From the NCBI GenBank assembly GCA_023091665.1, contig JALJCQ010000033.1, positions 744,001-808,000 of the forward strand: DNA of 64,000 nt. The letters are read 5' to 3'. Below are positions 27,488 to 60,221 of this stretch, piece after piece; within the stretch, counting starts at the first letter, position 1; each line of letters starts with the position of its first letter. Origin of the DNA: Pythium myriotylum. Taxonomy: Eukaryota; Oomycota; Peronosporomycetes; Pythiales; Pythiaceae. The notes under the pieces were generated by a model. That model did not search any database, was not told the DNA's origin, and was given only the letters and a program-made list of their open reading frames with translations. Made by a program: the position numbers and the translations under genes.

Positions 27488-29786
27488 CTCCCCCTCGACT
27501 CGACTGCGTCTTGGACACCAAGCTTGGTGCGGAGCACGTCGAACTGGACCGCGGGGATCGGCTTGGTCATGATGTCGGCAAGCATGTCTTGGGTCGGGCA
27601 ATACTGGAGAGACACTTGACCGTCCTCGACCTTCTCACGAACGAAGTGGTAGCGAATGTCGATGTGCTTGGTGCGCTTGTGGAACTCGGGGTTCTTGGCC
27701 AACGCGATCGCACCTTGGTTGTCTTCGTACACCGTGAGCGCTTGGTCACTTGCAACTTCGCCGAGTTCGCACAGGAACGCCTTGAGCCACACGGCTTCTT
27801 GGATTGCTTCCGATAGAGCCATGTACTCTGCTTCGGTCGAGGAGAGGGCGACAGTTCGCTGCTTCTTGCTGCGCCAGCTGATGCATCCGCCGTTGAGCAT
27901 GAACACGTAGCCGCTGGTGCTTCGACGTGACTCGATGTCGCCAGCCCAGTCGGCGTCGGAGTAGCCGACCAGTCTTCCGTCGTTCGATGCCGAGAACTGC
28001 AGGCCGTACATCGGAGTCGCTTGCAGATACCGGAGCACACGCTTGAGAGCTTGCCAGTGTGTTGGACACGGGTCCGCGGCGAACTGGCTGAGTGTGCCGA
28101 CTGCCGCTGCGAGGTCTGGTCGAGTGCCGACCATGAGGTACATGAGTGCGCCGACTGCACTTCGGTACGGCACGTTCTTCATGGTGTCTTCGTGCTTGCA
28201 ACCACCTTCGCACATGGCCTTGGTCAGCTTGAGTCCGGGGTCTTGAGGGGTCCTCACTGGTTTGCAGTCTTGCATGCCGAACTTGGTCAGGATCGACTGC
28301 AGGAACTTGGTCTGCCGCATGGTCACGTCGCCGGACTTGGGGTCTTGATCAACTTCCATGCCGAGGCAGTACTTGAGTTCGCCGAGGTCGGACATCTCGA
28401 AGCGTTCGCTGAGTGCACGCTTGGTCGCCGTGAGCAACTCGAGGCTGTTGCAGGCGAGGATGAGGTCGTCGACGTAGATCACGACGAAGATCATCGCTGA
28501 GCCGCTCCGCTTGACGTACACGCAGTGGTCCATCTCGCACTTGGTGAAGCCGACCTTGCGCATGAAGGCGTCGATGGTCTGGTTCCACGTGCGTGGCGAC
28601 TGCTTGAGACCGTAGAGCGAGCGCTTGAGCTTGCACACGTAGTCGGGGTGGCGCTGGTCGACGAAGCCTTCGGGCTGCTTCATGTAGATTTCTTCGTCGA
28701 GGTTGCCGTTCAGGAACGCCGTCTTGACATCCATCTGATGGATCATGAGCTTGTGTCGAGCGGCGATGCTGAGGATGGTGCGGATCGACGTGAACTTGGC
28801 GACGGGTGCGAACGTCTCTTCGAAGTCGATGCCGTACTTCTGCAGGAACCCCTTGGCAACGAGTCGAGCCTTGTACCGTTCGACGAGTCCTTCGGTGGTT
28901 TCCTTGACCTTGAACACCCACTTGCTGGTGATGGCCTTGCGTCCGGCTGGCAAAGGGACAAGGCCCCACGTCTCGTTCTTCTTGAGCGACTCGAGCTCGG
29001 AGTCGCAGGCTTCCTTCCAGTTGCTGGCGTCGTCGGATTCCATCGCCGACTTGAACGATGTCGGCAACTCTCCCCCTGAATTCACGACGAGAGCAAACTC
29101 TTCGTGGTCTTGATCTTCTACGCCTTCCTCTTCGATCCACGTGAGCAGTGCAGACAGATCTTCGAGCGATGTCCTTGAACCTTGCGTGGGTGGTGGGGTC
29201 GCACCACTTGTGCGACCAACCCGTCCGTAGCGCTTCTCAACTGGCGGTTCAGCCAGGTTCTCGAGCGAGCGCGTGCGAGAGTGGCGCTTGGACCCTGGTG
29301 CGTAGTCGACATTCGGCTGCTGGGCCGATGCTGGTGCTGCTGGACGCTGCGACCGCTGGCCCTGTTGCCACTCCGGTCGCTCGTAGCTGCGCTGACTTGG
29401 TGCTGGTGAGGCTGGCTGCTCACCCATGTCTTCATCATCATCATCTTGGTTGTCGGTTGCTTCATCTTGATCCTCATCATCTTCATCGTCGCGGAACTCG
29501 ACGGACTTGCTCCAGGGTTCTTCGCGCTTGCCGTCGTCGAACGTGTCTTCCATGAACTGCGCGTCTCGACTGATGACGATCCGGCCGGTTGCGAACTCTT
29601 CAAACCGATACGCCTTCTCGTGATCCGAGTAGCCGAGGAACCGACACAAGATGGCTCGAGCGTCGAATTTCGACCGCTTCTCCTTGGGCACGTGGACGTA
29701 CGCATGGCAGCCGAACACCTTGAAGTTGACGAGCAAGGGCTTCTTCCCGTACCATTCTTCGTACGGCGACTTGTACAAGTCTTGAG
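27442..29786 (-). pseudogene. Pol fragment L4: integrase C-terminus, RT and RNase H, open frame
   Basis: An open frame of about 778 codons from LYKSPYEEW to the stop in the LTR. It contains the acidic linker, complete RT ([35 protein letters not shown]) and complete RNase H ([21 protein letters not shown]). The RT has the first-subgroup Tyr in LYGLKQ, unlike L1 and L3, yet its start shares the KETTEGL variant with them, so it looks like a recombinant of the two subgroups. No Gag, protease or integrase core, and no start codon. The right edge is the TTGAG/LTR junction. Confidence 0.88.
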
Positions 29787-32700
29787 TGTTGGAAGGTCGC
29801 TTGGTTGGTGGGATGCAAAATGCAAAGTGAATTGATCGGGACTTAGTTCGCTACTGCTACCTCTAAGCCGTCTGTGTGTGTCCTACGCTACCATAATCAA
29901 ATGTATGTCCTACCTATCGTAAACATATGCAAACATAAACTGACTTCGTGGATACTTCAACGAAGTCGATGGGTGGCACTGGATTCAAACCAGAACCAGA
30001 CGGAGAATCTTCCACATGTCGAATCTTCCACGGAGAATCTTCTGCAGGAGAATCTTCTACAGCCGAGCTTCAACTGGAATGATGACGCTGGGTTCGAGGC
30101 GCATCATCTTCAACACTCCCCCTCGACTCGACTGCGTCTTGGACACCAAGCTTGGTGCGGAGCACGTCGAACTGGACAGTGGGGATCGGCTTGGTCATGA
30201 TGTCGGCAAGCATGTCTTGGGTCGGGCAGTACTGGAGACACACTTGACCGTCCTCGACCTTCTCACGAACGAAGTGGTAGCGAATGTTGATGTGCTTGGT
30301 GCGCTTGTGGAACTCGGGGTTCTTGGCCAACGCGATCGCACCTTGGTTGTCTTCGTACACCGTGAGCGCTTGGTCGCTTGCAACTTCGCCGAGTTCGCAC
30401 AGGAACGCCTTGAGCCACACGGCTTCTTGGATTGCTTCCGATAGAGCCATGTACTCTGCTTCGGTCGAGGAGAGGGCGACAGTTCGCTGCTTCTTGCTGC
30501 GCCAGCTGATGCATCCGCCGTTTGTTGAAAGGTCGCTTGGTTGGTGGGATGCAAAATGCAAAGTGAATTGATCGGGACTTAGTTCGCTACTGCTACCTCT
30601 AAGCCGTCTGTGTGTGTCCTACGCTACCATAACCAAATGTATGCTACCTATCGTAAACATATGCAAACATAAACTGACTTCGTGGATACTTCAACGAAGT
30701 CGATGGGTGGCACTGGATTCAAACCAGAACCAGACGGAGAATCTTCCACATGTCGAATCTTCCACGGAGAATCTTCTGCAGGAGAATCTTCTACAGCCGA
30801 GCTTCAACTGCCGAGCTTCAACTGGAATGATGACGCTGGGTTCGAGGCGCATCATCTTCAACACTCCCCCTCGACTCGACTGCGTCTTGGACACCAAGCT
30901 TGGTGCGGAGCACGTCGAACTGGACCGCGGGGATCGGCTTGGTCATGATGTCGGCAAGCATGTCTTGGGTCGGGCAGTACTGGAGACACACTTGACCGTC
31001 CTCGACCTTCTCACGAACGAAGTGGTAGCGAATGTTGATGTGCTTGGTGCGCTTGTGGAACTCGGGGTTCTTGGCCAACGCGATCGCACCTTGGTTGTCT
31101 TCGTACACCGTGAGCGCTTGGTCGCTTGCAACTTCGCCGAGTTCGCACAGGAACGCCTTGAGCCACACGGCTTCTTGGATTGCTTCCGATAGAGCCATGT
31201 ACTCTGCTTCGGTCGAGGAGAGGGCGACAGTTCGCTGCTTCTTGCTGCGCCAGCTGATGCATCCGCCGTTTGTTGAAAGGTCGCTTGGTTGGTGGGATGC
31301 AAAATGCAAAGTGAATTGATCGGGACTTAGTTCGCTACTGCTACCTCTAAGCCGTCTGTGTGTGTCCTACGCTACCATAACCAAATGTATGCTACCTATC
31401 GTAAACATATGCAAACATAAACTGACTTCGTGGATACTTCAACGAAGTCGATGGGTGGCACTGGATTCAAACCAGAACCAGACGGAGAATCTTCCACATG
31501 TCGAATCTTCCACGGAGAATCTTCTGCAGGAGAATCTTCTACAGCCGAGCTTCAACTGGAATGATGACGCTGGGTTCGAGGCGCATCATCTTCAACACTC
31601 CCCCTCGACTCGACTGCGTCTTGGACACCAAGCTTGGTGCGGAGCACGTCGAACTGGACCGCGGGGATCGGCTTGGTCATGATGTCGGCAAGCATGTCTT
31701 GGGTCGGGCAGTACTGGAGACACACTTGACCGTCCTCGACCTTCTCACGAACGAAGTGGTAGCGAATGTTGATGTGCTTGGTGCGCTTGTGGAACTCGGG
31801 GTTCTTGGCCAACGCGATCGCACCTTGGTTGTCTTCGTACACCGTGAGCGCTTGGTCGCTTGCAACTTCGCCGAGTTCGCACAGGAACGCCTTGAGCCAC
31901 ACGGCTTCTTGGATTGCTTCCGATAGAGCCATGTACTCTGCTTCGGTCGAGGAGAGGGCGACAGTTCGCTGCTTCTTGCTGCGCCAGCTGATGCATCCGC
32001 CGTTTGTTGAAAGGTCGCTTGGTTGGTGGGATGCAAAATGCAAAGTGAATTGATCGGGACTTAGTTCGCTACTGCTACCTCTAAGCCGTCTGTGTGTGTC
32101 CTACGCTACCATAACCAAATGTATGCTACCTATCGTAAACATATGCAAACATAAACTGACTTCGTGGATACTTCAACGAAGTCGATGGGTGGCACTGGAT
32201 TCAAACCAGAACCAGACGGAGAATCTTCCACATGTCGAATCTTCCACGGAGAATCTTCTGCAGGAGAATCTTCTACAGCCGAGCTTCAACTGCCGAGCTT
32301 CAACTGGAATGATGACGCTGGGTTCGAGGCGCATCATCTTCAACACTCCCCCTCGACTCGACTGCGTCTTGGACACCAAGCTTGGTGCGGAGCACGTCGA
32401 ACTGGACCGCGGGGATCGGCTTGGTCATGATGTCGGCAAGCATGTCTTGGGTCGGGCAGTACTGGAGACACACTTGACCGTCCTCGACCTTCTCACGAAC
32501 GAAGTGGTAGCGAATGTTGATGTGCTTGGTGCGCTTGTGGAACTCGGGGTTCTTGGCCAACGCGATCGCACCTTGGTTGTCTTCGTACACCGTGAGCGCT
32601 TGGTCGCTTGCAACTTCGCCGAGTTCGCACAGGAACGCCTTGAGCCACACGGCTTCTTGGATTGCTTCCGATAGAGCCATGTACTCTGCTTCGGTCGAGG

Positions 32701-35700
32701 AGAGGGCGACAGTTCGCTGCTTCTTGCTGCGCCAGCTGATGCATCCGCCGTTTGTTGAAAGGTCGCTTGGTTGGTGGGATGCAAAATGCAAAGTGAATTG
32801 ATCGGGACTTAGTTCGCTACTGCTACCTCTAAGCCGTCTGTGTGTGTCCTACGCTACCATAACCAAATGTATGCTACCTATCGTAAACATATGCAAACAT
32901 AAACTGACTTCGTGGATACTTCAACGAAGTCGATGGGTGGCACTGGATTCAAACCAGAACCAGACGGAGAATCTTCCACATGTCGAATCTTCCACGGAGA
33001 ATCTTCTGCAGGAGAATCTTCTACAGCCGAGCTTCAACTGGAATGATGACGCTGGGTTCGAGGCGCATCATCTTCAACACTCCCCCTCGACTCGACTGCG
33101 TCTTGGACACCAAGCTTGGTGCGGAGCACGTCGAACTGGACCGCGGGGATCGGCTTGGTCATGATGTCGGCAAGCATGTCTTGGGTCGGGCAGTACTGGA
33201 GACACACTTGACCGTCCTCGACCTTCTCACGAACGAAGTGGTAGCGAATGTTGATGTGCTTGGTGCGCTTGTGGAACTCGGGGTTCTTGGCCAACGCGAT
33301 CGCACCTTGGTTGTCTTCGTACACCGTGAGCGCTTGGTCGCTTGCAACTTCGCCGAGTTCGCACAGGAACGCCTTGAGCCACACGGCTTCTTGGATTGCT
33401 TCCGATAGAGCCATGTACTCTGCTTCGGTCGAGGAGAGGGCGACAGTTCGCTGCTTCTTGCTGCGCCAGCTGATGCATCCGCCGTTTGTTGAAAGGTCGC
33501 TTGGTTGGTGGGATGCAAAATGCAAAGTGAATTGATCGGGACTTAGTTCGCTACTGCTACCTCTAAGCCGTCTGTGTGTGTCCTACGCTACCATAACCAA
33601 ATGTATGCTACCTATCGTAAACATATGCAAACATAAACTGACTTCGTGGATACTTCAACGAAGTCGATGGGTGGCACTGGATTCAAACCAGAACCAGACG
33701 GAGAATCTTCCACATGTCGAATCTTCCACGGAGAATCTTCTGCAGGAGAATCTTCTACAGCCGAGCTTCAACTGGAATGATGACGCTGGGTTCGAGGCGC
33801 ATCATCTTCAACACTCCCCCTCGACTCGACTGCGTCTTGGACACCAAGCTTGGTGCGGAGCACGTCGAACTGGACCGCGGGGATCGGCTTGGTCATGATG
33901 TCGGCAAGCATGTCTTGGGTCGGGCAGTACTGGAGACACACTTGACCGTCCTCGACCTTCTCACGAACGAAGTGGTAGCGAATGTTGATGTGCTTGGTGC
34001 GCTTGTGGAACTCGGGGTTCTTGGCCAACGCGATCGCACCTTGGTTGTCTTCGTACACCGTGAGCGCTTGGTCGCTTGCAACTTCGCCGAGTTCGCACAG
34101 GAACGCCTTGAGCCACACGGCTTCTTGGATTGCTTCCGATAGAGCCATGTACTCTGCTTCGGTCGAGGAGAGGGCGACAGTTCGCTGCTTCTTGCTGCGC
34201 CAGCTGATGCATCCGCCGTTTGTTGAAAGGTCGCTTGGTTGGTGGGATGCAAAATGCAAAGTGAATTGATCGGGACTTAGTTCGCTACTGCTACCTCTAA
34301 GCCGTCTGTGTGTGTCCTACGCTACCATAACCAAATGTATGCTACCTATCGTAAACATATGCAAACATAAACTGACTTCGTGGATACTTCAACGAAGTCG
34401 ATGGGTGGCACTGGATTCAAACCAGAACCAGACGGAGAATCTTCCACATGTCGAATCTTCCACATGTCGAATCTTCCACGGAGAATCTTCTGCAGGAGAA
34501 TCTTCTACAGCCGAGCTTCAACTGGAATGATGACGCTGGGTTCGAGGCGCATCATCTTCAACACTCCCCCTCGACTCGACTGCGTCTTGGACACCAAGCT
34601 TGGTGCGGAGCACGTCGAACTGGACAGTGGGGATCGGCTTGGTCATGATGTCGGCAAGCATGTCTTGGGTCGGGCAGTACTGGAGACACACTTGACCGTC
34701 CTCGACCTTCTCACGAACGAAGTGGTAGCGAATGTTGATGTGCTTGGTGCGCTTGTGGAACTCGGGGTTCTTGGCCAACGCGATCGCACCTTGGTTGTCT
34801 TCGTACACCGTGAGCGCTTGGTCGCTTGCAACTTCGCCGAGTTCGCACAGGAACGCCTTGAGCCACACGGCTTCTTGGATTGCTTCCGATAGAGCCATGT
34901 ACTCTGCTTCGGTCGAGGAGAGGGCGACAGTTCGCTGCTTCTTGCTGCGCCAGCTGATGCATCCGCCGTTTGTTGAAAGGTCGCTTGGTTGGTGGGATGC
35001 AAAATGCAAAGTGAATTGATCGGGACTTAGTTCGCTACTGCTACCTCTAAGCCGTCTGTGTGTGTCCTACGCTACCATAACCAAATGTATGCTACCTATC
35101 GTAAACATATGCAAACATAAACTGACTTCGTGGATACTTCAACGAAGTCGATGGGTGGCACTGGATTCAAACCAGAACCAGACGGAGAATCTTCCACATG
35201 TCGAATCTTCCACGGAGAATCTTCTGCAGGAGAATCTTCTACAGCCGAGCTTCAACTGGAATGATGACGCTGGGTTCGAGGCGCATCATCTTCAACACTC
35301 CCCCTCGACTCGACTGCGTCTTGGACACCAAGCTTGGTGCGGAGCACGTCGAACTGGACAGTGGGGATCGGCTTGGTCATGATGTCGGCAAGCATGTCTT
35401 GGGTCGGGCAGTACTGGAGACACACTTGACCGTCCTCGACCTTCTCACGAACGAAGTGGTAGCGAATGTTGATGTGCTTGGTGCGCTTGTGGAACTCGGG
35501 GTTCTTGGCCAACGCGATCGCACCTTGGTTGTCTTCGTACACCGTGAGCGCTTGGTCGCTTGCAACTTCGCCGAGTTCGCACAGGAACGCCTTGAGCCAC
35601 ACGGCTTCTTGGATTGCTTCCGATAGAGCCATGTACTCTGCTTCGGTCGAGGAGAGGGCGACAGTTCGCTGCTTCTTGCTGCGCCAGCTGATGCATCCGC

Positions 35701-38640
35701 CGTTTGTTGAAAGGTCGCTTGGTTGGTGGGATGCAAAATGCAAAGTGAATTGATCGGGACTTAGTTCGCTACTGCTACCTCTAAGCCGTCTGTGTGTGTC
35801 CTACGCTACCATAACCAAATGTATGCTACCTATCGTAAACATATGCAAACATAAACTGACTTCGTGGATACTTCAACGAAGTCGATGGGTGGCACTGGAT
35901 TCAAACCAGAACCAGACGGAGAATCTTCCACATGTCGAATCTTCCACGGAGAATCTTCTGCAGGAGAATCTTCTACAGCCGAGCTTCAACTGGAATGATG
36001 ACGCTGGGTTCGAGGCGCATCATCTTCAACACTCCCCCTCGACTCGACTGCGTCTTGGACACCAAGCTTGGTGCGGAGCACGTCGAACTGGACAGTGGGG
36101 ATCGGCTTGGTCATGATGTCGGCAAGCATGTCTTGGGTCGGGCAGTACTGGAGACACACTTGACCGTCCTCGACCTTCTCACGAACGAAGTGGTAGCGAA
36201 TGTTGATGTGCTTGGTGCGCTTGTGGAACTCGGGGTTCTTGGCCAACGCGATCGCACCTTGGTTGTCTTCGTACACCGTGAGCGCTTGGTCGCTTGCAAC
36301 TTCGCCGAGTTCGCACAGGAACGCCTTGAGCCACACGGCTTCTTGGATTGCTTCCGATAGAGCCATGTACTCTGCTTCGGTCGAGGAGAGGGCGACAGTT
36401 CGCTGCTTCTTGCTGCGCCAGCTGATGCATCCGCCGTTTGTTGAAAGGTCGCTTGGTTGGTGGGATGCAAAATGCAAAGTGAATTGATCGGGACTTAGTT
36501 CGCTACTGCTACCTCTAAGCCGTCTGTGTGTGTCCTACGCTACCATAACCAAATGTATGCTACCTATCGTAAACATATGCAAACATAAACTGACTTCGTG
36601 GATACTTCAACGAAGTCGATGGGTGGCACTGGATTCAAACCAGAACCAGACGGAGAATCTTCCACATGTCGAATCTTCCACGGAGAATCTTCTGCAGGAG
36701 AATCTTCTACAGCCGAGCTTCAACTGGAATGATGACGCTGGGTTCGAGGCGCATCATCTTCAACACTCCCCCTCGACTCGACTGCGTCGTGGACACCAAG
36801 CTTGGTGCGGAGCACGTCGAACTGGACAGTGGGGATCGGCTTGGTCATGATGTCGGCAAGCATGTCTTGGGTCGGGCAGTACTGGAGACACACTTGACCG
36901 TCCTCGACCTTCTCACGGACGAAGTGGTAGCGAATGTTGATGTGCTTGGTGCGCTTGTGGAACTCGGGGTTCTTGGCCAACGCGATCGCACCTTGGTTGT
37001 CTTCGTACACCGTGAGCGCTTGGTCGCTTGCAACTTCGCCGAGTTCGCACAGGAACGCCTTGAGCCACACGGCTTCTTGGATTGCTTCCGATAGAGCCAT
37101 GTACTCTGCTTCGGTCGAGGAGAGGGCGACAGTTCGCTGCTTCTTGCTGCGCCAGCTGATGCATCCGCCGTTTGTTGAAAGGTCGCTTGGTTGGTGGGAT
37201 GCAAAATGCAAAGTGAATTGATCGGGACTTAGTTCGCTACTGCTACCTCTAAGCCGTCTGTGTGTGTCCTACGCTACCATAACCAAATGTATGCTACCTA
37301 TCGTAAACATATGCAAACATAAACTGACTTCGTGGATACTTCAACGAAGTCGATGGGTGGCACTGGATTCAAACCAGAACCAGACGGAGAATCTTCCACA
37401 TGTCGAATCTTCCACGGAGAATCTTCTGCAGGAGAATCTTCTACAGCCGAGCTTCAACTGGAATGATGACGCTGGGTTCGAGGCGCATCATCTTCAACAC
37501 TCCCCCTCGACTCGACTGCGTCGTGGACACCAAGCTTGGTGCGGAGCACGTCGAACTGGACAGTGGGGATCGGCTTGGTCATGATGTCGGCAAGCATGTC
37601 TTGGGTCGGGCAGTACTGGAGACACACTTGACCGTCCTCGACCTTCTCACGAACGAAGTGGTAGCGAATGTTGATGTGCTTGGTGCGCTTGTGGAACTCG
37701 GGGTTCTTGGCCAACGCGATCGCACCTTGGTTGTCTTCGTACACCGTGAGCGCTTGGTCGCTTGCAACTTCGCCGAGTTCGCACAGGAACGCCTTGAGCC
37801 ACACGGCTTCTTGGATTGCTTCCGATAGAGCCATGTACTCTGCTTCGGTCGAGGAGAGGGCGACAGTTCGCTGCTTCTTGCTGCGCCAGCTGATGCATCC
37901 GCCGTTTGTTGAAAGGTCGCTTGGTTGGTGGGATGCAAAATGCAAAGTGAATTGATCGGGACTTAGTTCGCTACTGCTACCTCTAAGCCGTCTGTGTGTG
38001 TCCTACGCTACCATAACCAAATGTATGCTACCTATCGTAAACATATGCAAACATAAACTGACTTCGTGGATACTTCAACGAAGTCGATGGGTGGCACTGG
38101 ATTCAAACCAGAACCAGACGGAGAATCTTCCACATGTCGAATCTTCCACGGAGAATCTTCTGCAGGAGAATCTTCTACAGCCGAGCTTCAACTGGAATGA
38201 TGACGCTGGGTTCGAGGCGCATCATCTTCAACACTCCCCCTCGACTCGACTGCGTCGTGGACACCAAGCTTGGTGCGGAGCACGTCGAACTGGACCGCGG
38301 GGATCGGCTTGGTCATGATGTCGGCAAGCATGTCTTGGGTCGGGCAGTACTGGAGACACACTTGACCGTCCTCGACCTTCTCACGAACGAAGTGGTAGCG
38401 AATGTTGATGTGCTTGGTGCGCTTGTGGAACTCGGGGTTCTTGGCCAACGCGATCGCACCTTGGTTGTCTTCGTACACCGTGAGCGCTTGGTCGCTTGCA
38501 ACTTCGCCGAGTTCGCACAGGAACGCCTTGAGCCACACGGCTTCTTGGATTGCTTCCGATAGAGCCATGTACTCTGCTTCGGTCGAGGAGAGGGCGACAG
38601 TTCGCTGCTTCTTGCTGCGCCAGCTGATGCATCCGCCGTT
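29787..38640 (-). repeat. Array part 1: short units (734-750 bp)
   Basis: Twelve units. Most have one copy of the 14 bp CGAGCTTCAACTGC step; the 748 bp units have two. The 750 bp unit at 34221 has an extra 16 bp (CACATGTCGAATCTTC). Units from 30523 to 34220 share a CCGCGGG variant that changes to CAGTGGGG from 34221 on. Confidence 0.93.
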
Positions 38641-41600
38641 TGTTGAAAGGTCGCTTGGTTGGTGGGATGCAAAATGCAAAGTGAATTGATCGGGACTTAG
38701 TTCGCTACTGCTACCTCTAAGCCGTCTGTGTGTGTCCTACGCTACCATAACCAAATGTATGCTACCTATCGTAAACATATGCAAACATAAACTGACTTCG
38801 TGGATACTTCAACGAAGTCGATGGGTGGCACTGGATTCAAACCAGAACCAGACGGAGAATCTTCCACATGTCGAATCTTCCACGGAGAATCTTCCACATG
38901 TCGAATCTTCCACGGAGAATCTTCTGCAGGAGAATCTTCTACAGCCGAGCTTCAACTGCCGAGCTTCAACTGGAATGATGACGCTGGGTTCGAGGCGCAT
39001 CATCTTCAACACTCCCCCTCGACTCGACTGCGTCTTGGACACCAAGCTTGGTGCGGAGCACGTCGAACTGGACAGTGGGGATCGGCTTGGTCATGATGTC
39101 GGCAAGCATGTCTTGGGTCGGGCAGTACTGGAGACACACTTGACCGTCCTCGACCTTCTCACGAACGAAGTGGTAGCGAATGTTGATGTGCTTGGTGCGC
39201 TTGTGGAACTCGGGGTTCTTGGCCAACGCGATCGCACCTTGGTTGTCTTCGTACACCGTGAGCGCTTGGTCGCTTGCAACTTCGCCGAGTTCGCACAGGA
39301 ACGCCTTGAGCCACACGGCTTCTTGGATTGCTTCCGATAGAGCCATGTACTCTGCTTCGGTCGAGGAGAGGGCGACAGTTCGCTGCTTCTTGCTGCGCCA
39401 GCTGATGCATCCGCCGTTTGTTGAAAGGTCGCTTGGTTGGTGGGATGCAAAATGCAAAGTGAATTGATCGGGACTTAGTTCGCTACTGCTACCTCTAAGC
39501 CGTCTGTGTGTGTCCTACGCTACCATAACCAAATGTATGCTACCTATCGTAAACATATGCAAACATAAACTGACTTCGTGGATACTTCAACGAAGTCGAT
39601 GGGTGGCACTGGATTCAAACCAGAACCAGACGGAGAATCTTCCACATGTCGAATCTTCCACGGAGAATCTTCCACATGTCGAATCTTCCACGGAGAATCT
39701 TCTGCAGGAGAATCTTCTACAGCCGAGCTTCAACTGCCGAGCTTCAACTGGAATGATGACGCTGGGTTCGAGGCGCATCATCTTCAACACTCCCCCTCGA
39801 CTCGACTGCGTCTTGGACACCAAGCTTGGTGCGGAGCACGTCGAACTGGACAGTGGGGATCGGCTTGGTCATGATGTCGGCAAGCATGTCTTGGGTCGGG
39901 CAGTACTGGAGACACACTTGACCGTCCTCGACCTTCTCACGAACGAAGTGGTAGCGAATGTTGATGTGCTTGGTGCGCTTGTGGAACTCGGGGTTCTTGG
40001 CCAACGCGATCGCACCTTGGTTGTCTTCGTACACCGTGAGCGCTTGGTCGCTTGCAACTTCGCCGAGTTCGCACAGGAACGCCTTGAGCCACACGGCTTC
40101 TTGGATTGCTTCCGATAGAGCCATGTACTCTGCTTCGGTCGAGGAGAGGGCGACAGTTCGCTGCTTCTTGCTGCGCCAGCTGATGCATCCGCCGTTTGTT
40201 GAAAGGTCGCTTGGTTGGTGGGATGCAAAATGCAAAGTGAATTGATCGGGACTTAGTTCGCTACTGCTACCTCTAAGCCGTCTGTGTGTGTCCTACGCTA
40301 CCATAACCAAATGTATGCTACCTATCGTAAACATATGCAAACATAAACTGACTTCGTGGATACTTCAACGAAGTCGATGGGTGGCACTGGATTCAAACCA
40401 GAACCAGACGGAGAATCTTCCACATGTCGAATCTTCCACGGAGAATCTTCTGCAGGAGAATCTTCTACAGCCGAGCTTCAACTGGAATGATGACGCTGGG
40501 TTCGAGGCGCATCATCTTCAACACTCCCCCTCGACTCGACTGCGTCGTGGACACCAAGCTTGGTGCGGAGCACGTCGAACTGGACAGTGGGGATCGGCTT
40601 GGTCATGATGTCGGCAAGCATGTCTTGGGTCGGGCAGTACTGGAGACACACTTGACCGTCCTCGACCTTCTCACGGACGAAGTGGTAGCGAATGTTGATG
40701 TGCTTGGTGCGCTTGTGGAACTCGGGGTTCTTGCCCAACGCGATCGCACCTTGGTTGTCTTCGTACACCGTGAGCGCTTGGTCGCTTGCAACTTCGCCGA
40801 GTTCGCACAGGAACGCCTTGAGCCACACGGCTTCTTGGATTGCTTCCGATAGAGCCATGTACTCTGCTTCGGTCGAGGAGAGGGCGACAGTTCGCTGCTT
40901 CTTGCTGCGCCAGCTGATGCATCCGCCGTTTGTTGAAAGGTCGCTTGGTTGGTGGGATGCAAAATGCAAAGTGAATTGATCGGGACTTAGTTCGCTACTG
41001 CTACCTCTAAGCCGTCTGTGTGTGTCCTACGCTACCATAACCAAATGTATGCTACCTATCGTAAACATATGCAAACATAAACTGACTTCGTGGATACTTC
41101 AACGAAGTCGATGGGTGGCACTGGATTCAAACCAGAACCAGACGGAGAATCTTCCACATGTCGAATCTTCCACGGAGAATCTTCTGCAGGAGAATCTTCT
41201 ACAGCCGAGCTTCAACTGGAATGATGACGCTGGGTTCGAGGCGCATCATCTTCAACACTCCCCCTCGACTCGACTGCGTCGTGGACACCAAGCTTGGTGC
41301 GGAGCACGTCGAACTGGACAGTGGGGATCGGCTTGGTCATGATGTCGGCAAGCATGTCTTGGGTCGGGCAGTACTGGAGACACACTTGACCGTCCTCGAC
41401 CTTCTCACGAACGAAGTGGTAGCGAATGTTGATGTGCTTGGTGCGCTTGTGGAACTCGGGGTTCTTGGCCAACGCGATCGCACCTTGGTTGTCTTCGTAC
41501 ACCGTGAGCGCTTGGTCGCTTGCAACTTCGCCGAGTTCGCACAGGAACGCCTTGAGCCACACGGCTTCTTGGATTGCTTCCGATAGAGCCATGTACTCTG

Positions 41601-44600: not shown

Positions 44601-47600
44601 GGTCGAGGAGAGGGCGACAGTTCGCTGCTTCTTGCTGCGCCAGCTGATGCATCCGCCGTTTGTTGAAAGGTCGCTTGGTTGGTGGGATGCAAAATGCAAA
44701 GTGAATTGATCGGGACTTAGTTCGCTACTGCTACCTCTAAGCCGTCTGTGTGTGTCCTACGCTACCATAACCAAATGTATGCTACCTATCGTAAACATAT
44801 GCAAACATAAACTGACTTCGTGGATACTTCAACGAAGTCGATGGGTGGCACTGGATTCAAACCAGAACCAGACGGAGAATCTTCCACATGTCGAATCTTC
44901 CACGGAGAATCTTCCACATGTCGAATCTTCCACGGAGAATCTTCTGCAGGAGAATCTTCTACAGCCGAGCTTCAACTGCCGAGCTTCAACTGGAATGATG
45001 ACGCTGGGTTCGAGGCGCATCATCTTCAACACTCCCCCTCGACTCGACTGCGTCGTGGACACCAAGCTTGGTGCGGAGCACGTCGAACTGGACAGTGGGG
45101 ATCGGCTTGGTCATGATGTCGGCAAGCATGTCTTGGGTCGGGCAGTACTGGAGACACACTTGACCGTCCTCGACCTTCTCACGAACGAAGTGGTAGCGAA
45201 TGTTGATGTGCTTGGTGCGCTTGTGGAACTCGGGGTTCTTGGCCAACGCGATCGCACCTTGGTTGTCTTCGTACACCGTGAGCGCTTGGTCGCTTGCAAC
45301 TTCGCCGAGTTCGCACAGGAACGCCTTGAGCCACACGGCTTCTTGGATTGCTTCCGATAGAGCCATGTACTCTGCTTCGGTCGAGGAGAGGGCGACAGTT
45401 CGCTGCTTCTTGCTGCGCCAGCTGATGCATCCGCCGTTTGTTGAAAGGTCGCTTGGTTGGTGGGATGCAAAATGCAAAGTGAATTGATCGGGACTTAGTT
45501 CGCTACTGCTACCTCTAAGCCGTCTGTGTGTGTCCTACGCTACCATAACCAAATGTATGCTACCTATCGTAAACATATGCAAACATAAACTGACTTCGTG
45601 GATACTTCAACGAAGTCGATGGGTGGCACTGGATTCAAACCAGAACCAGACGGAGAATCTTCCACATGTCGAATCTTCCACGGAGAATCTTCCACATGTC
45701 GAATCTTCCACGGAGAATCTTCTGCAGGAGAATCTTCTACAGCCGAGCTTCAACTGCCGAGCTTCAACTGGAATGATGACGCTGGGTTCGAGGCGCATCA
45801 TCTTCAACACTCCCCCTCGACTCGACTGCGTCGTGGACACCAAGCTTGGTGCGGAGCACGTCGAACTGGACAGTGGGGATCGGCTTGGTCATGATGTCGG
45901 CAAGCATGTCTTGGGTCGGGCAGTACTGGAGACACACTTGACCGTCCTCGACCTTCTCACGAACGAAGTGGTAGCGAATGTTGATGTGCTTGGTGCGCTT
46001 GTGGAACTCGGGGTTCTTGCCCAACGCGATCGCACCTTGGTTGTCTTCGTACACCGTGAGCGCTTGGTCGCTTGCAACTTCGCCGAGTTCGCACAGGAAC
46101 GCCTTGAGCCACACGGCTTCTTGGATTGCTTCCGATAGAGCCATGTACTCTGCTTCGGTCGAGGAGAGGGCGACAGTTCGCTGCTTCTTGCTGCGCCAGC
46201 TGATGCATCCGCCGTTTGTTGAAAGGTCGCTTGGTTGGTGGGATGCAAAATGCAAAGTGAATTGATCGGGACTTAGTTCGCTACTGCTACCTCTAAGCCG
46301 TCTGTGTGTGTCCTACGCTACCATAACCAAATGTATGCTACCTATCGTAAACATATGCAAACATAAACTGACTTCGTGGATACTTCAACGAAGTCGATGG
46401 GTGGCACTGGATTCAAACCAGAACCAGACGGAGAATCTTCCACATGTCGAATCTTCCACGGAGAATCTTCCACATGTCGAATCTTCCACGGAGAATCTTC
46501 TGCAGGAGAATCTTCTACAGCCGAGCTTCAACTGCCGAGCTTCAACTGGAATGATGACGCTGGGTTCGAGGCGCATCATCTTCAACACTCCCCCTCGACT
46601 CGACTGCGTCGTGGACACCAAGCTTGGTGCGGAGCACGTCGAACTGGACAGTGGGGATCGGCTTGGTCATGATGTCGGCAAGCATGTCTTGGGTCGGGCA
46701 GTACTGGAGACACACTTGACCGTCCTCGACCTTCTCACGAACGAAGTGGTAGCGAATGTTGATGTGCTTGGTGCGCTTGTGGAACTCGGGGTTCTTGGCC
46801 AACGCGATCGCACCTTGGTTGTCTTCGTACACCGTGAGCGCTTGGTCGCTTGCAACTTCGCCGAGTTCGCACAGGAACGCCTTGAGCCACACGGCTTCTT
46901 GGATTGCTTCCGATAGAGCCATGTACTCTGCTTCGGTCGAGGAGAGGGCGACAGTTCGCTGCTTCTTGCTGCGCCAGCTGATGCATCCGCCGTTTGTTGA
47001 AAGGTCGCTTGGTTGGTGGGATGCAAAATGCAAAGTGAATTGATCGGGACTTAGTTCGCTACTGCTACCTCTAAGCCGTCTGTGTGTGTCCTACGCTACC
47101 ATAACCAAATGTATGCTACCTATCGTAAACATATGCAAACATAAACTGACTTCGTGGATACTTCAACGAAGTCGATGGGTGGCACTGGATTCAAACCAGA
47201 ACCAGACGGAGAATCTTCCACATGTCGAATCTTCCACATGTCGAATCTTCCACGGAGAATCTTCTGCAGGAGAATCTTCTACAGCCGAGCTTCAACTGGA
47301 ATGATGACGCTGGGTTCGAGGCGCATCATCTTCAACACTCCCCCTCGACTCGACTGCGTCTTGGACACCAAGCTTGGTGCGGAGCACGTCGAACTGGACA
47401 GTGGGGATCGGCTTGGTCATGATGTCGGCAAGCATGTCTTGGGTCGGGCAGTACTGGAGACACACTTGACCGTCCTCGACCTTCTCACGAACGAAGTGGT
47501 AGCGAATGTTGATGTGCTTGGTGCGCTTGTGGAACTCGGGGTTCTTGGCCAACGCGATCGCACCTTGGTTGTCTTCGTACACCGTGAGCGCTTGGTCGCT

Positions 47601-47744
47601 TGCAACTTCGCCGAGTTCGCACAGGAACGCCTTGAGCCACACGGCTTCTTGGATTGCTTCCGATAGAGCCATGTACTCTGCTTCGGTCGAGGAGAGGGCG
47701 ACAGTTCGCTGCTTCTTGCTGCGCCAGCTGATGCATCCGCCGTT
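38641..47744 (-). repeat. Array part 2: mixed units (734, 750 and 778 bp)
   Basis: Twelve units in which lengths and point variants are shuffled. The TTGCCC variant, for example, occurs in units at 40197, 41665, 42399, 43149 and 45439 in both 734, 750 and 778 bp forms. Confidence 0.93.
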
Positions 47745-50700
47745 TGTTGAAAGGTCGCTTGGTTGGTGGGATGCAAAATGCAAAGTGAATTGATCGGGAC
47801 TTAGTTCGCTACTGCTACCTCTAAGCCGTCTGTGTGTGTCCTACGCTACCATAACCAAATGTATGCTACCTATCGTAAACATATGCAAACATAAACTGAC
47901 TTCGTGGATACTTCAACGAAGTCGATGGGTGGCACTGGATTCAAACCAGAACCAGACGGAGAATCTTCCACATGTCGAATCTTCCACGGAGAATCTTCCA
48001 CATGTCGAATCTTCCACGGAGAATCTTCTGCAGGAGAATCTTCTACAGCCGAGCTTCAACTGCCGAGCTTCAACTGGAATGATGACGCTGGGTTCGAGGC
48101 GCATCATCTTCAACACTCCCCCTCGACTCGACTGCGTCGTGGACACCAAGCTTGGTGCGGAGCACGTCGAACTGGACAGTGGGGATCGGCTTGGTCATGA
48201 TGTCGGCAAGCATGTCTTGGGTCGGGCAGTACTGGAGACACACTTGACCGTCCTCGACCTTCTCACGAACGAAGTGGTAGCGAATGTTGATGTGCTTGGT
48301 GCGCTTGTGGAACTCGGGGTTCTTGGCCAACGCGATCGCACCTTGGTTGTCTTCGTACACCGTGAGCGCTTGGTCGCTTGCAACTTCGCCGAGTTCGCAC
48401 AGGAACGCCTTGAGCCACACGGCTTCTTGGATTGCTTCCGATAGAGCCATGTACTCTGCTTCGGTCGAGGAGAGGGCGACAGTTCGCTGCTTCTTGCTGC
48501 GCCAGCTGATGCATCCGCCGTTTGTTGAAAGGTCGCTTGGTTGGTGGGATGCAAAATGCAAAGTGAATTGATCGGGACTTAGTTCGCTACTGCTACCTCT
48601 AAGCCGTCTGTGTGTGTCCTACGCTACCATAACCAAATGTATGCTACCTATCGTAAACATATGCAAACATAAACTGACTTCGTGGATACTTCAACGAAGT
48701 CGATGGGTGGCACTGGATTCAAACCAGAACCAGACGGAGAATCTTCCACATGTCGAATCTTCCACGGAGAATCTTCCACATGTCGAATCTTCCACGGAGA
48801 ATCTTCTGCAGGAGAATCTTCTACAGCCGAGCTTCAACTGCCGAGCTTCAACTGGAATGATGACGCTGGGTTCGAGGCGCATCATCTTCAACACTCCCCC
48901 TCGACTCGACTGCGTCTTGGACACCAAGCTTGGTGCGGAGCACGTCGAACTGGACAGTGGGGATCGGCTTGGTCATGATGTCGGCAAGCATGTCTTGGGT
49001 CGGGCAGTACTGGAGACACACTTGACCGTCCTCGACCTTCTCACGAACGAAGTGGTAGCGAATGTTGATGTGCTTGGTGCGCTTGTGGAACTCGGGGTTC
49101 TTGGCCAACGCGATCGCACCTTGGTTGTCTTCGTACACCGTGAGCGCTTGGTCGCTTGCAACTTCGCCGAGTTCGCACAGGAACGCCTTGAGCCACACGG
49201 CTTCTTGGATTGCTTCCGATAGAGCCATGTACTCTGCTTCGGTCGAGGAGAGGGCGACAGTTCGCTGCTTCTTGCTGCGCCAGCTGATGCATCCGCCGTT
49301 TGTTGAAAGGTCGCTTGGTTGGTGGGATGCAAAATGCAAAGTGAATTGATCGGGACTTAGTTCGCTACTGCTACCTCTAAGCCGTCTGTGTGTGTCCTAC
49401 GCTACCATAACCAAATGTATGCTACCTATCGTAAACATATGCAAACATAAACTGACTTCGTGGATACTTCAACGAAGTCGATGGGTGGCACTGGATTCAA
49501 ACCAGAACCAGACGGAGAATCTTCCACATGTCGAATCTTCCACGGAGAATCTTCCACATGTCGAATCTTCCACGGAGAATCTTCTGCAGGAGAATCTTCT
49601 ACAGCCGAGCTTCAACTGCCGAGCTTCAACTGGAATGATGACGCTGGGTTCGAGGCGCATCATCTTCAACACTCCCCCTCGACTCGACTGCGTCTTGGAC
49701 ACCAAGCTTGGTGCGGAGCACGTCGAACTGGACAGTGGGGATCGGCTTGGTCATGATGTCGGCAAGCATGTCTTGGGTCGGGCAGTACTGGAGACACACT
49801 TGACCGTCCTCGACCTTCTCACGAACGAAGTGGTAGCGAATGTTGATGTGCTTGGTGCGCTTGTGGAACTCGGGGTTCTTGGCCAACGCGATCGCACCTT
49901 GGTTGTCTTCGTACACCGTGAGCGCTTGGTCGCTTGCAACTTCGCCGAGTTCGCACAGGAACGCCTTGAGCCACACGGCTTCTTGGATTGCTTCCGATAG
50001 AGCCATGTACTCTGCTTCGGTCGAGGAGAGGGCGACAGTTCGCTGCTTCTTGCTGCGCCAGCTGATGCATCCGCCGTTTGTTGAAAGGTCGCTTGGTTGG
50101 TGGGATGCAAAATGCAAAGTGAATTGATCGGGACTTAGTTCGCTACTGCTACCTCTAAGCCGTCTGTGTGTGTCCTACGCTACCATAACCAAATGTATGC
50201 TACCTATCGTAAACATATGCAAACATAAACTGACTTCGTGGATACTTCAACGAAGTCGATGGGTGGCACTGGATTCAAACCAGAACCAGACGGAGAATCT
50301 TCCACATGTCGAATCTTCCACGGAGAATCTTCCACATGTCGAATCTTCCACGGAGAATCTTCTGCAGGAGAATCTTCTACAGCCGAGCTTCAACTGCCGA
50401 GCTTCAACTGGAATGATGACGCTGGGTTCGAGGCGCATCATCTTCAACACTCCCCCTCGACTCGACTGCGTCTTGGACACCAAGCTTGGTGCGGAGCACG
50501 TCGAACTGGACAGTGGGGATCGGCTTGGTCATGATGTCGGCAAGCATGTCTTGGGTCGGGCAGTACTGGAGACACACTTGACCGTCCTCGACCTTCTCAC
50601 GAACGAAGTGGTAGCGAATGTTGATGTGCTTGGTGCGCTTGTGGAACTCGGGGTTCTTGGCCAACGCGATCGCACCTTGGTTGTCTTCGTACACCGTGAG

Positions 50701-53700
50701 CGCTTGGTCGCTTGCAACTTCGCCGAGTTCGCACAGGAACGCCTTGAGCCACACGGCTTCTTGGATTGCTTCCGATAGAGCCATGTACTCTGCTTCGGTC
50801 GAGGAGAGGGCGACAGTTCGCTGCTTCTTGCTGCGCCAGCTGATGCATCCGCCGTTTGTTGAAAGGTCGCTTGGTTGGTGGGATGCAAAATGCAAAGTGA
50901 ATTGATCGGGACTTAGTTCGCTACTGCTACCTCTAAGCCGTCTGTGTGTGTCCTACGCTACCATAACCAAATGTATGCTACCTATCGTAAACATATGCAA
51001 ACATAAACTGACTTCGTGGATACTTCAACGAAGTCGATGGGTGGCACTGGATTCAAACCAGAACCAGACGGAGAATCTTCCACATGTCGAATCTTCCACG
51101 GAGAATCTTCCACATGTCGAATCTTCCACGGAGAATCTTCTGCAGGAGAATCTTCTACAGCCGAGCTTCAACTGCCGAGCTTCAACTGGAATGATGACGC
51201 TGGGTTCGAGGCGCATCATCTTCAACACTCCCCCTCGACTCGACTGCGTCGTGGACACCAAGCTTGGTGCGGAGCACGTCGAACTGGACAGTGGGGATCG
51301 GCTTGGTCATGATGTCGGCAAGCATGTCTTGGGTCGGGCAGTACTGGAGACACACTTGACCGTCCTCGACCTTCTCACGAACGAAGTGGTAGCGAATGTT
51401 GATGTGCTTGGTGCGCTTGTGGAACTCGGGGTTCTTGGCCAACGCGATCGCACCTTGGTTGTCTTCGTACACCGTGAGCGCTTGGTCGCTTGCAACTTCG
51501 CCGAGTTCGCACAGGAACGCCTTGAGCCACACGGCTTCTTGGATTGCTTCCGATAGAGCCATGTACTCTGCTTCGGTCGAGGAGAGGGCGACAGTTCGCT
51601 GCTTCTTGCTGCGCCAGCTGATGCATCCGCCGTTTGTTGAAAGGTCGCTTGGTTGGTGGGATGCAAAATGCAAAGTGAATTGATCGGGACTTAGTTCGCT
51701 ACTGCTACCTCTAAGCCGTCTGTGTGTGTCCTACGCTACCATAACCAAATGTATGCTACCTATCGTAAACATATGCAAACATAAACTGACTTCGTGGATA
51801 CTTCAACGAAGTCGATGGGTGGCACTGGATTCAAACCAGAACCAGACGGAGAATCTTCCACATGTCGAATCTTCCACGGAGAATCTTCCACATGTCGAAT
51901 CTTCCACGGAGAATCTTCTGCAGGAGAATCTTCTACAGCCGAGCTTCAACTGCCGAGCTTCAACTGGAATGATGACGCTGGGTTCGAGGCGCATCATCTT
52001 CAACACTCCCCCTCGACTCGACTGCGTCGTGGACACCAAGCTTGGTGCGGAGCACGTCGAACTGGACAGTGGGGATCGGCTTGGTCATGATGTCGGCAAG
52101 CATGTCTTGGGTCGGGCAGTACTGGAGACACACTTGACCGTCCTCGACCTTCTCACGAACGAAGTGGTAGCGAATGTTGATGTGCTTGGTGCGCTTGTGG
52201 AACTCGGGGTTCTTGGCCAACGCGATCGCACCTTGGTTGTCTTCGTACACCGTGAGCGCTTGGTCGCTTGCAACTTCGCCGAGTTCGCACAGGAACGCCT
52301 TGAGCCACACGGCTTCTTGGATTGCTTCCGATAGAGCCATGTACTCTGCTTCGGTCGAGGAGAGGGCGACAGTTCGCTGCTTCTTGCTGCGCCAGCTGAT
52401 GCATCCGCCGTTTGTTGAAAGGTCGCTTGGTTGGTGGGATGCAAAATGCAAAGTGAATTGATCGGGACTTAGTTCGCTACTGCTACCTCTAAGCCGTCTG
52501 TGTGTGTCCTACGCTACCATAACCAAATGTATGCTACCTATCGTAAACATATGCAAACATAAACTGACTTCGTGGATACTTCAACGAAGTCGATGGGTGG
52601 CACTGGATTCAAACCAGAACCAGACGGAGAATCTTCCACATGTCGAATCTTCCACGGAGAATCTTCCACATGTCGAATCTTCCACGGAGAATCTTCTGCA
52701 GGAGAATCTTCTACAGCCGAGCTTCAACTGCCGAGCTTCAACTGGAATGATGACGCTGGGTTCGAGGCGCATCATCTTCAACACTCCCCCTCGACTCGAC
52801 TGCGTCTTGGACACCAAGCTTGGTGCGGAGCACGTCGAACTGGACAGTGGGGATCGGCTTGGTCATGATGTCGGCAAGCATGTCTTGGGTCGGGCAGTAC
52901 TGGAGACACACTTGACCGTCCTCGACCTTCTCACGAACGAAGTGGTAGCGAATGTTGATGTGCTTGGTGCGCTTGTGGAACTCGGGGTTCTTGGCCAACG
53001 CGATCGCACCTTGGTTGTCTTCGTACACCGTGAGCGCTTGGTCGCTTGCAACTTCGCCGAGTTCGCACAGGAACGCCTTGAGCCACACGGCTTCTTGGAT
53101 TGCTTCCGATAGAGCCATGTACTCTGCTTCGGTCGAGGAGAGGGCGACAGTTCGCTGCTTCTTGCTGCGCCAGCTGATGCATCCGCCGTTTGTTGAAAGG
53201 TCGCTTGGTTGGTGGGATGCAAAATGCAAAGTGAATTGATCGGGACTTAGTTCGCTACTGCTACCTCTAAGCCGTCTGTGTGTGTCCTACGCTACCATAA
53301 CCAAATGTATGCTACCTATCGTAAACATATGCAAACATAAACTGACTTCGTGGATACTTCAACGAAGTCGATGGGTGGCACTGGATTCAAACCAGAACCA
53401 GACGGAGAATCTTCCACATGTCGAATCTTCCACGGAGAATCTTCCACATGTCGAATCTTCCACGGAGAATCTTCTGCAGGAGAATCTTCTACAGCCGAGC
53501 TTCAACTGCCGAGCTTCAACTGGAATGATGACGCTGGGTTCGAGGCGCATCATCTTCAACACTCCCCCTCGACTCGACTGCGTCGTGGACACCAAGCTTG
53601 GTGCGGAGCACGTCGAACTGGACAGTGGGGATCGGCTTGGTCATGATGTCGGCAAGCATGTCTTGGGTCGGGCAGTACTGGAGACACACTTGACCGTCCT

Positions 53701-55524
53701 CGACCTTCTCACGAACGAAGTGGTAGCGAATGTTGATGTGCTTGGTGCGCTTGTGGAACTCGGGGTTCTTGGCCAACGCGATCGCACCTTGGTTGTCTTC
53801 GTACACCGTGAGCGCTTGGTCGCTTGCAACTTCGCCGAGTTCGCACAGGAACGCCTTGAGCCACACGGCTTCTTGGATTGCTTCCGATAGAGCCATGTAC
53901 TCTGCTTCGGTCGAGGAGAGGGCGACAGTTCGCTGCTTCTTGCTGCGCCAGCTGATGCATCCGCCGTTTGTTGAAAGGTCGCTTGGTTGGTGGGATGCAA
54001 AATGCAAAGTGAATTGATCGGGACTTAGTTCGCTACTGCTACCTCTAAGCCGTCTGTGTGTGTCCTACGCTACCATAACCAAATGTATGCTACCTATCGT
54101 AAACATATGCAAACATAAACTGACTTCGTGGATACTTCAACGAAGTCGATGGGTGGCACTGGATTCAAACCAGAACCAGACGGAGAATCTTCCACATGTC
54201 GAATCTTCCACGGAGAATCTTCCACATGTCGAATCTTCCACGGAGAATCTTCTGCAGGAGAATCTTCTACAGCCGAGCTTCAACTGCCGAGCTTCAACTG
54301 GAATGATGACGCTGGGTTCGAGGCGCATCATCTTCAACACTCCCCCTCGACTCGACTGCGTCTTGGACACCAAGCTTGGTGCGGAGCACGTCGAACTGGA
54401 CAGTGGGGATCGGCTTGGTCATGATGTCGGCAAGCATGTCTTGGGTCGGGCAGTACTGGAGACACACTTGACCGTCCTCGACCTTCTCACGAACGAAGTG
54501 GTAGCGAATGTTGATGTGCTTGGTGCGCTTGTGGAACTCGGGGTTCTTGGCCAACGCGATCGCACCTTGGTTGTCTTCGTACACCGTGAGCGCTTGGTCG
54601 CTTGCAACTTCGCCGAGTTCGCACAGGAACGCCTTGAGCCACACGGCTTCTTGGATTGCTTCCGATAGAGCCATGTACTCTGCTTCGGTCGAGGAGAGGG
54701 CGACAGTTCGCTGCTTCTTGCTGCGCCAGCTGATGCATCCGCCGTTTGTTGAAAGGTCGCTTGGTTGGTGGGATGCAAAATGCAAAGTGAATTGATCGGG
54801 ACTTAGTTCGCTACTGCTACCTCTAAGCCGTCTGTGTGTGTCCTACGCTACCATAACCAAATGTATGCTACCTATCGTAAACATATGCAAACATAAACTG
54901 ACTTCGTGGATACTTCAACGAAGTCGATGGGTGGCACTGGATTCAAACCAGAACCAGACGGAGAATCTTCCACATGTCGAATCTTCCACGGAGAATCTTC
55001 CACATGTCGAATCTTCCACGGAGAATCTTCTGCAGGAGAATCTTCTACAGCCGAGCTTCAACTGCCGAGCTTCAACTGGAATGATGACGCTGGGTTCGAG
55101 GCGCATCATCTTCAACACTCCCCCTCGACTCGACTGCGTCTTGGACACCAAGCTTGGTGCGGAGCACGTCGAACTGGACAGTGGGGATCGGCTTGGTCAT
55201 GATGTCGGCAAGCATGTCTTGGGTCGGGCAGTACTGGAGACACACTTGACCGTCCTCGACCTTCTCACGAACGAAGTGGTAGCGAATGTTGATGTGCTTG
55301 GTGCGCTTGTGGAACTCGGGGTTCTTGGCCAACGCGATCGCACCTTGGTTGTCTTCGTACACCGTGAGCGCTTGGTCGCTTGCAACTTCGCCGAGTTCGC
55401 ACAGGAACGCCTTGAGCCACACGGCTTCTTGGATTGCTTCCGATAGAGCCATGTACTCTGCTTCGGTCGAGGAGAGGGCGACAGTTCGCTGCTTCTTGCT
55501 GCGCCAGCTGATGCATCCGCCGTT
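47745..55524 (-). repeat. Array part 3: ten uniform 778 bp units next to element C
   Basis: Ten consecutive units of exactly 778 bp. They differ mainly at one site (CGTCGTGG or CGTCTTGG). The LTR has two copies of a 30 bp block in the GAAGATTC repeats. The adjoining LTR of element C has the same 371 bp form. Confidence 0.95.
54294..54746 (-). pseudogene. Representative short pol end within the array
   Basis: One of the 34 equivalent pieces. The RNase H C-terminal code NGGCISW... to the stop in the LTR is open, and the frame extends upstream into the neighbouring LTR, giving about 163 codons without a stop. The first in-frame ATG is inside STEAEYMAL. It lacks the first RNase H aspartate, the RT and a primer-binding site, so it has no expected enzyme activity. 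Every unit keeps this frame open, which may just reflect recent amplification. Confidence 0.9.
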
Positions 55525-60172: not shown

Positions 60173-60221
60173 GGCGAAGGCTGGGGAGGCGAAGTCGGTG
60201 GAGGCAGAGTCGGCTGGGCTT

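What the first reader, a model, noticed from the sequence alone, without database searches (positions are those of the whole stretch)
29787..55524. A 25.7 kb satellite array made from a copia LTR plus the RNase H end of pol
Thirty-four head-to-tail units of 734-778 bp, all in one orientation, each one LTR and the same 407 bp of pol. The LTR/pol joint (CCTTTCAACA to the NGGC codon) is identical to the base in every unit, so all descend from one joint. Birth of a satellite from an LTR retrotransposon has been proposed in plants and animals, but an array this clear, still attached to an intact parental-type element, is unusual.
Basis: partly seen in the sequence, partly recalled or inferred. Interest (0 to 1): 0.88.

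Follow-up and report, generated by a model that had tools for sequence, protein, structure and literature searches.

The report
Satellite array from nested retrotransposon insertions
In what looks like an oomycete centromere, a jumping element probably inserted into a copy of itself, and recombination between its end repeats then multiplied the resulting fragment into a 26-kilobase tandem array, which shows how a new satellite DNA can begin.

Summary
In detail: 29787-55524 carries 34 head-to-tail units of 734-778 bp in one orientation, each one LTR plus the same 407 bp of pol, with an identical joint; two more units lie at 25649-27146. The array sits in a ~104 kb block made almost only of one Ty1/copia family in an oomycete genome, where listed copies form one main cluster per contig, as the CoLT clusters at Phytophthora sojae centromeres do. 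"A satellite born from a retrotransposon" is supported, but the origin can be stated more exactly. The joint is the exact LTR terminus next to an interior pol base. Joints of this form recur at dozens of other positions in the family, and the 11 start/end pairs matched by position overlap by exactly 5 bp. So it is best read as an integration joint of one copy into another in the same orientation; recombination between direct LTRs then multiplied the piece. The reciprocal joint was not found, so this step is inferred. Units lack the primer binding site. Arrays with other joints were read on three other contigs. LTR-derived tandem repeats are known; this is a new variant. Assembly accuracy and centromere function are untested.

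The parts
29787..55524 (-). main array: 34 units, each LTR plus 407 bp of pol (3' end)
25649..27146 (-). two further units with the same joint, cut off from the main array by a 2.3-kb pol piece
55525..60590 (-). full-length copia element with a long open frame; shares its 3' LTR with the array
60234..60590 (-). 5' LTR of that element, followed in sense direction by the presumed primer binding site GGTTGTGAGCCC
55525..55895 (-). first LTR of the array; identical to LTR 54747 and unlike the element's 5' LTR
30116..30522 (-). example 407-bp pol piece (from codons NGGC to the polypurine tract)
27488..29786 (-). 2.3-kb pol piece between an LTR|2382 joint and the next LTR
23343..25648 (-). second 2.3-kb pol piece with the same LTR|2382 joint
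60591..62920 (-). third 2.3-kb pol piece with the LTR|2382 joint
17138..22197 (+). opposite-orientation copy; its left side sits at pol 4239 (flank ends CAGTC), its right end abuts another copy at pol 3229
2621..2625 (+). CAGTC at another LTR end (pol 4243), which completes the 5-bp overlap with pol 4239; not adjacent to 17138
1..792 (-). end of an opposite-orientation copy (C33:739725-744792) inserted at pol 3257-3261, 5-bp duplication AAAGG on both sides

Best explanation
A Ty1/copia element that accumulates in one block per contig inserts into its own copies. One insertion, in the same orientation as its host copy, landed at pol position 4319 and created the joint LTR end|AACGGC. This left the structure LTR-407 bp-LTR, two direct LTRs about 0.4 kb apart. 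Unequal exchange or gene conversion between direct LTRs, perhaps between sister chromatids, then copied this LTR-plus-407 unit many times, shuffled it with neighbouring pieces (full element, 2.3-kb pieces), and removed the other side of the original insertion. The array is thus an incipient satellite whose unit borders are set by where integrase cut. Shown: the anatomy, exact-terminus joints, 5-bp duplications at other nested insertions, other arrays, LTR exchange at the array edge, likeness of neighbouring units. Inferred: that this joint itself came from an insertion, the order of events, the exchange mechanism, and that the block is a centromere.
For: Joint at the exact LTR terminus in 36 of 36 units, with no filler. 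Among 57 distinct non-standard LTR joints from C1, C3 and the listed part of C4, 45 were placed inside the same family; 8 start/end pairs were found at an overlap of 5 bp and none at 3, 4, 6 or 7 bp (the last two pairs matched by hand), against about 0.07 expected per offset. Three more 5-bp pairs in the C33 block, matched by hand. Of the 11 pairs, 6 have their two sides about one element length (4.3-5.1 kb) apart on one strand; the other 5 are separated by later rearrangement or lie on different strands (for nine of the pairs; positions). A complete same-orientation nested copy with its 5-bp duplication, the predicted precursor state, on C1 at L031:1431-6438. A C22 array whose 208-bp piece is bounded by insertion joints on both sides. 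A C1 array of LTR plus pol 3820-4725 with the same design and a different joint. Interleaved order of pieces in the chain: 2.3 kb, full, 34 x 407, 2.3 kb, 2 x 407, 2.3 kb. LTR sharing at the element/array edge. Neighbouring units more alike than shuffled ones, 0 of 2000 shuffles at lags 1 and 2.
Against: The reciprocal joint (pol 4323|LTR start) was not found in the assembly with up to 3 mismatches, so the insertion at this site is not directly seen. The same joint occurs once on C3 with a different pol haplotype and LTR end, so either the site was hit twice or the history includes exchange and conversion. The prediction that same-orientation insertions lose one side more often has only weak support: 1 of 18 against 10 of 29 sites, p = 0.033, and no support when only pairs one element length apart count (1 of 18 against 5 of 29, p = 0.38). 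Exchange, conversion and rolling-circle growth are not separated.
Confidence: 0.75

Rival explanations
1. Self-integration of a linear cDNA copy into its own pol made a small circle of one LTR plus 407 bp; the circle, perhaps amplified by rolling-circle replication, then recombined into a chromosomal LTR.
For: Such a circle would carry exactly this joint and no reciprocal joint, and none was found. Self-integration is known for retroviruses and Ty1 (recalled, no paper looked up).
Against: The C22 array piece has insertion joints on both sides, which one self-integration does not give. Chromosomal nested insertions with 5-bp duplications are plentiful. The chain alternates different pieces. Likeness of units falls with distance. 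None of this excludes it for the 4319 joint itself.
Confidence: 0.12
2. An internal deletion by illegitimate recombination in one element joined the 5' LTR to pol, followed by unequal exchange, as proposed for the maize CRM1TR and CRM4TR repeats.
For: Gives the same unit type; proposed by Sharma et al. (PMC3648361, passages read).
Against: The break falls exactly at the last LTR base in all four arrays read, C33, C1, C12 and C22; a random deletion would rarely do so.
Confidence: 0.06
3. The array, or its length and order, is an assembly artefact.
For: Reads could not be inspected; near-identical repeats are hard to assemble.
Against: The longest exact repeat inside the array is 2795 bp, so reads of 5 kb or more could in principle place most units; unit variants are ordered non-randomly; the contig runs on through sequence without this element on both sides of the block.
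Confidence: 0.07
4. The unit is a non-autonomous mini-element that moves by itself and inserts in tandem.
For: Short, with an LTR at each end and a polypurine tract.
Against: The sequence after the LTR is pol in 36 of 36 joints, where full copies have GGTTATGAGCCC or GGTTGTGAGCCC; no duplications between units; 36 of 37 joints are at one locus.
Confidence: 0.02

Closest known systems
CRM1TR and CRM4TR, maize centromeric-retrotransposon tandem repeats (PMC3648361, passages)
   Same: Units made of LTR plus adjacent element sequence, at or near centromeres; growth by conversion or unequal exchange proposed; nested insertion suggested by the authors as a possible source.
   Different: Those are Ty3/gypsy LTR-UTR pieces, for which the authors found no short repeats that would explain the joint in one step; here the joint is the exact LTR terminus on pol, in a Ty1/copia family of an oomycete, with several arrays of different joints.
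CoLT centromeric copia clusters of Phytophthora sojae and relatives (PMC7082073, passages)
   Same: Ty1/copia, about 5 kb, clusters usually once per contig.
   Different: The main text has no occurrence of 'tandem' or 'nested'; CENP-A binding not tested here.
Wukong TRIM tandem elements of maize (PMC4528315, passages)
   Same: Chains of same-orientation LTRs ascribed to unequal crossing over.
   Different: Wukong keeps primer binding site and polypurine tract and is dispersed; chains have at most seven LTRs in the passages read.
LTR-sharing tandem elements by ectopic LTR recombination (McGurk and Barbash model, as summarised in review PMC12628747, passages)
   Same: Same growth step: recombination between LTRs leaves tandem copies that share one LTR.
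   Different: Here the multiplied piece is, on my reading, cut out by self-insertion, so its length is set by the insertion site.
Satellites from tandem repeats inside Ogre elements of Lathyrus (PMC7004042, passages)
   Same: Retrotransposon-derived arrays that expand mainly in primary constrictions.
   Different: Those grow from short repeats within the element's 3' untranslated region; here the unit is LTR plus pol.

Membership tests
Ty1/copia element | gag, integrase, then reverse transcriptase order | tested here: met
   Pfam in three pieces: copia gag, gag_pre-integrs, rve, RVT_2 in that order; protease and RNase H gave no Pfam hit under those names
Ty1/copia element | LTR with TG...CA ends and 5-bp target duplication | tested here: met
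Ty1/copia element | tRNA primer binding site after the 5' LTR | not tested
   GGTTATGAGCCC or GGTTGTGAGCCC follows the LTR in full copies; its match to the iMet anticodon arm is recalled and was not searched
CoLT-type centromeric copia | copies in one cluster per contig | tested here: met
   met for the rows listed: 16 contigs, all rows of a contig within about 212 kb at most, except one further copy on C33 about 63 kb outside the block; only one row on C9 and one on C15; lists are capped, so unlisted copies were not seen
CoLT-type centromeric copia | CENP-A binding | not testable with these tools
   no ChIP data
CoLT-type centromeric copia | groups with CoLT in an RT tree | not tested
Retrotransposon-derived tandem repeat | head-to-tail units homologous to part of a known element | tested here: met
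Satellite DNA in the strict sense | abundant repeat at many loci or chromosomes | tested here: not met
   36 of 37 joints at one locus
TRIM / mini LTR element | primer binding site after the 5' LTR | tested here: not met
   pol follows the LTR directly in 36 of 36 joints

The most novel reading that the evidence does not exclude
A self-targeting centromeric copia element works as a satellite factory: same-orientation self-insertions cut out pieces between direct LTRs, and LTR exchange turns some of these pieces into arrays whose period is fixed by the insertion site. Several arrays of different period coexist in one genome, so the switch from retrotransposon-based to satellite-based centromeres can be watched in progress.
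Probability: 0.4. Interest if true: 0.75.

Novelty: new variant of a known kind. Interest (0 to 1): 0.58.

Why it matters
How satellites start is an open question, and in old satellites the founding joint can seldom be read (my judgement). Here the unit border is a base-exact joint that a known enzyme step can explain, the likely precursor state is present in the same genome, and several arrays of different length allow the growth step to be compared. If the block is a centromere, it shows satellites arising inside a retrotransposon-based centromere of a stramenopile.

Tried and rejected
Rejected: the joint as the normal 3' end of the element. The normal 3' joint is polypurine tract|LTR start; this one is LTR end|pol. 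Rejected: spread of the unit as a mobile mini-element (no binding site after the LTR, one locus).

Looked for the reciprocal joint genome-wide: none with up to 3 mismatches. Considered that C3 holds the founding insertion; its pol haplotype groups with its C3 neighbours, not with the array. The shared 2382 joint on C1 likewise has a pol haplotype identical to an ordinary copy on C12 and unlike the C33 pieces. About 0.006 shared sites are expected by chance and two are seen, so preferred insertion sites, or old exchange followed by conversion, remain open. No order of unit types longer than three units is repeated in the array.

Corrections made on checking. One search left out two of the 38 non-standard LTR-end rows printed; they were placed and both made further 5-bp pairs. 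The orientation test was run four times: 1 of 17 against 8 of 29, p = 0.12, without those rows; 1 of 17 against 10 of 29, p = 0.036; 1 of 18 against 10 of 29, p = 0.033, after adding a same-orientation joint of the C33 block (LTR start at 144) that I had overlooked; and 1 of 18 against 5 of 29, p = 0.38, when only pairs about one element length apart count. Joints seen in L004-L008 and L029-L033 were not part of these tests, nor were the unplaced joints. The chance figure (0.064) used slightly wrong joint numbers; recounted it is 0.066. Of the 12 joints left unplaced, one was later placed inside an LTR.

Papers: for PMC3648361, PMC11139960, PMC7082073, PMC12628747, PMC4528315, PMC7004042 and PMC9584435 I saw passages only; other papers only in search listings.
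Full report
Place. The window is C33:744001-808000 of an unnamed 58.7-Mb genome in 55 contigs. A flanking gene encodes a Zf_WRKY19 protein with ten matched stretches; its four best hits are oomycete proteins (Nothophytophthora, Pythium, Phytophthora, Globisporangium). The best named hits of a pol piece of the repeat are oomycete copia proteins, below five unnamed ones. So the host is an oomycete; the species was not determined.

Observation. The 36 units of the window are 16 distinct sequences and differ mainly in copy number of short repeats inside the LTR. The joint occurs 37 times genome-wide with up to 2 mismatches, 36 of them here.

Surroundings. About 104 kb of C33 (about 721-824.5 kb) are covered almost throughout by this one copia family, apart from a gap near 727-731 kb. 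The array is part of a chain of 41 same-orientation LTRs between 22998 and 62921. The pieces between them, in sense order, are: 2.3 kb (pol 2382 to end), the full element, 34 x 407 bp, 2.3 kb, 2 x 407 bp, 2.3 kb. The 3'-terminal LTR base variant goes with the joint: T in 36 of 36 LTRs before the 407-bp piece, C in 5 of 5 LTRs of the window before a 2382 piece. The full element's 3' LTR matches the next array LTR base for base (371 of 371) but differs from its own 5' LTR, which is what exchange between LTRs leaves.

What the joint is. LTRs run TGTTGAAGATG...CCTTYCAACA. In ordinary copies the LTR end is followed by GGTTATGAGCCC or a close variant. In the array it is followed directly by pol position 4319. 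Non-standard joints of the same form, exact LTR terminus next to an interior base of another copy, are frequent in the block. Three insertion sites in the block show both sides with a 5-bp overlap: 4239/4243, 3257/3261 and 3497/3501; in the last two the sides flank one contiguous element. On C1, C3 and the listed part of C4, 57 distinct non-standard joints were read: 45 were placed inside the same family and 12 were not placed. Eight pairs overlap by exactly 5 bp and none by 3, 4, 6 or 7; about 0.07 are expected per offset. Four of these eight have their sides about one element length apart on one strand; the other four do not, so there the duplication is read from positions, not from one intact insertion. 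One pair is a complete same-orientation nested element on C1 (L031:1431-6438, duplication ACATT), which is the predicted founder state. The reciprocal joint for 4319 itself was not found, so for this array the insertion is inferred.

Other arrays read. C22 (L029): period 566-567 bp, LTR plus element bases 879-1086 (208 bp), six LTR|879 joints in the stretch read, with an insertion joint on each side of the piece. C1 (L033): period 1241 bp, LTR plus pol 3820-4725, four joints. C12 (L032): period 1791 bp, a more complex unit with a partial opposite LTR, five LTR-end joints in the stretch read. C33:814-820 kb: period 2614 bp, the 2382 joint, three times. Regular spacing of listed LTR joints suggests more: C3 near 4029 bp, C12 2215-2243 bp and 1537 bp, C4 1065 bp and about 3.4-3.5 kb, C1 4691-4694 bp; these were not read.

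Growth. Neighbouring units of the main array are more alike than expected (mean distance 1.82 against 3.33 at lag 1, 0 of 2000 shuffles; the effect fades by lags 8-9). This fits local exchange or conversion and not a single concatemer insertion left alone. Of the two outlying units, one carries a pol haplotype identical to an ordinary copy nearby (C33:765426), and the other lies among ordinary copies in the tree, which points to conversion or exchange with them.

Direction. Same-orientation insertions create direct LTRs that can recombine; opposite ones do not. If this removes one side of an insertion, pairs should survive more often at opposite-orientation sites. Counted by position they do: 10 of 29 against 1 of 18, p = 0.033. 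Counting only pairs about one element length apart the difference is not significant: 5 of 29 against 1 of 18, p = 0.38 (sites). C4 is only partly listed, and the test was made after seeing the data. I give it little weight.

Centromere reading. Genome-wide 816 LTR ends and 822 LTR starts were counted with one mismatch allowed (backward-pattern controls 4 and 1), and 385 LTR ends next to the presumed binding site. The rows listed fall on 16 contigs in one main cluster each, as CoLT clusters usually do in P. sojae relatives (PMC7082073, passages). This is a likeness; CENP-A data are needed, and unlisted copies were not seen.

Known or new. Tandem repeats from LTR elements, LTR sharing, and nested insertion as a possible source are in print (PMC3648361, PMC12628747, PMC4528315, PMC7004042; passages). 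In the listings and passages of my searches I saw no paper that ties a satellite joint to an integration joint, nor one on tandem arrays of CoLT; those searches cover a library of open-access papers only. I rate it a new variant of a known kind.

Noticed in passing
C33:837758-874172 (outside the window; L021-L025): A second tandem array, 1074-bp unit, 33.6 copies, with 33 tRNA-Glu(TTC) genes, about 13 kb from the copia block. Tandem tRNA arrays are reported in P. infestans (PMC9584435, passages).
   Followed up: partly
C33 and C1 (LTR|2382); C33 and C3 (LTR|4319): Two insertion joints recur at the same base on two contigs each, with different pol haplotypes; about 0.006 such coincidences expected. 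Preferred insertion sites, or old exchange followed by conversion.
   Followed up: partly
LTR interiors, e.g. 38852-38924 and 60445-60517: Each LTR holds small tandem repeats (14-30 bp units) whose copy number makes most of the unit length differences.
   Followed up: partly
C12:2546001-2555000 (L032): An array of 1791-bp units that includes a partial opposite-orientation LTR, so arrays can also form from more complex nests.
   Followed up: partly
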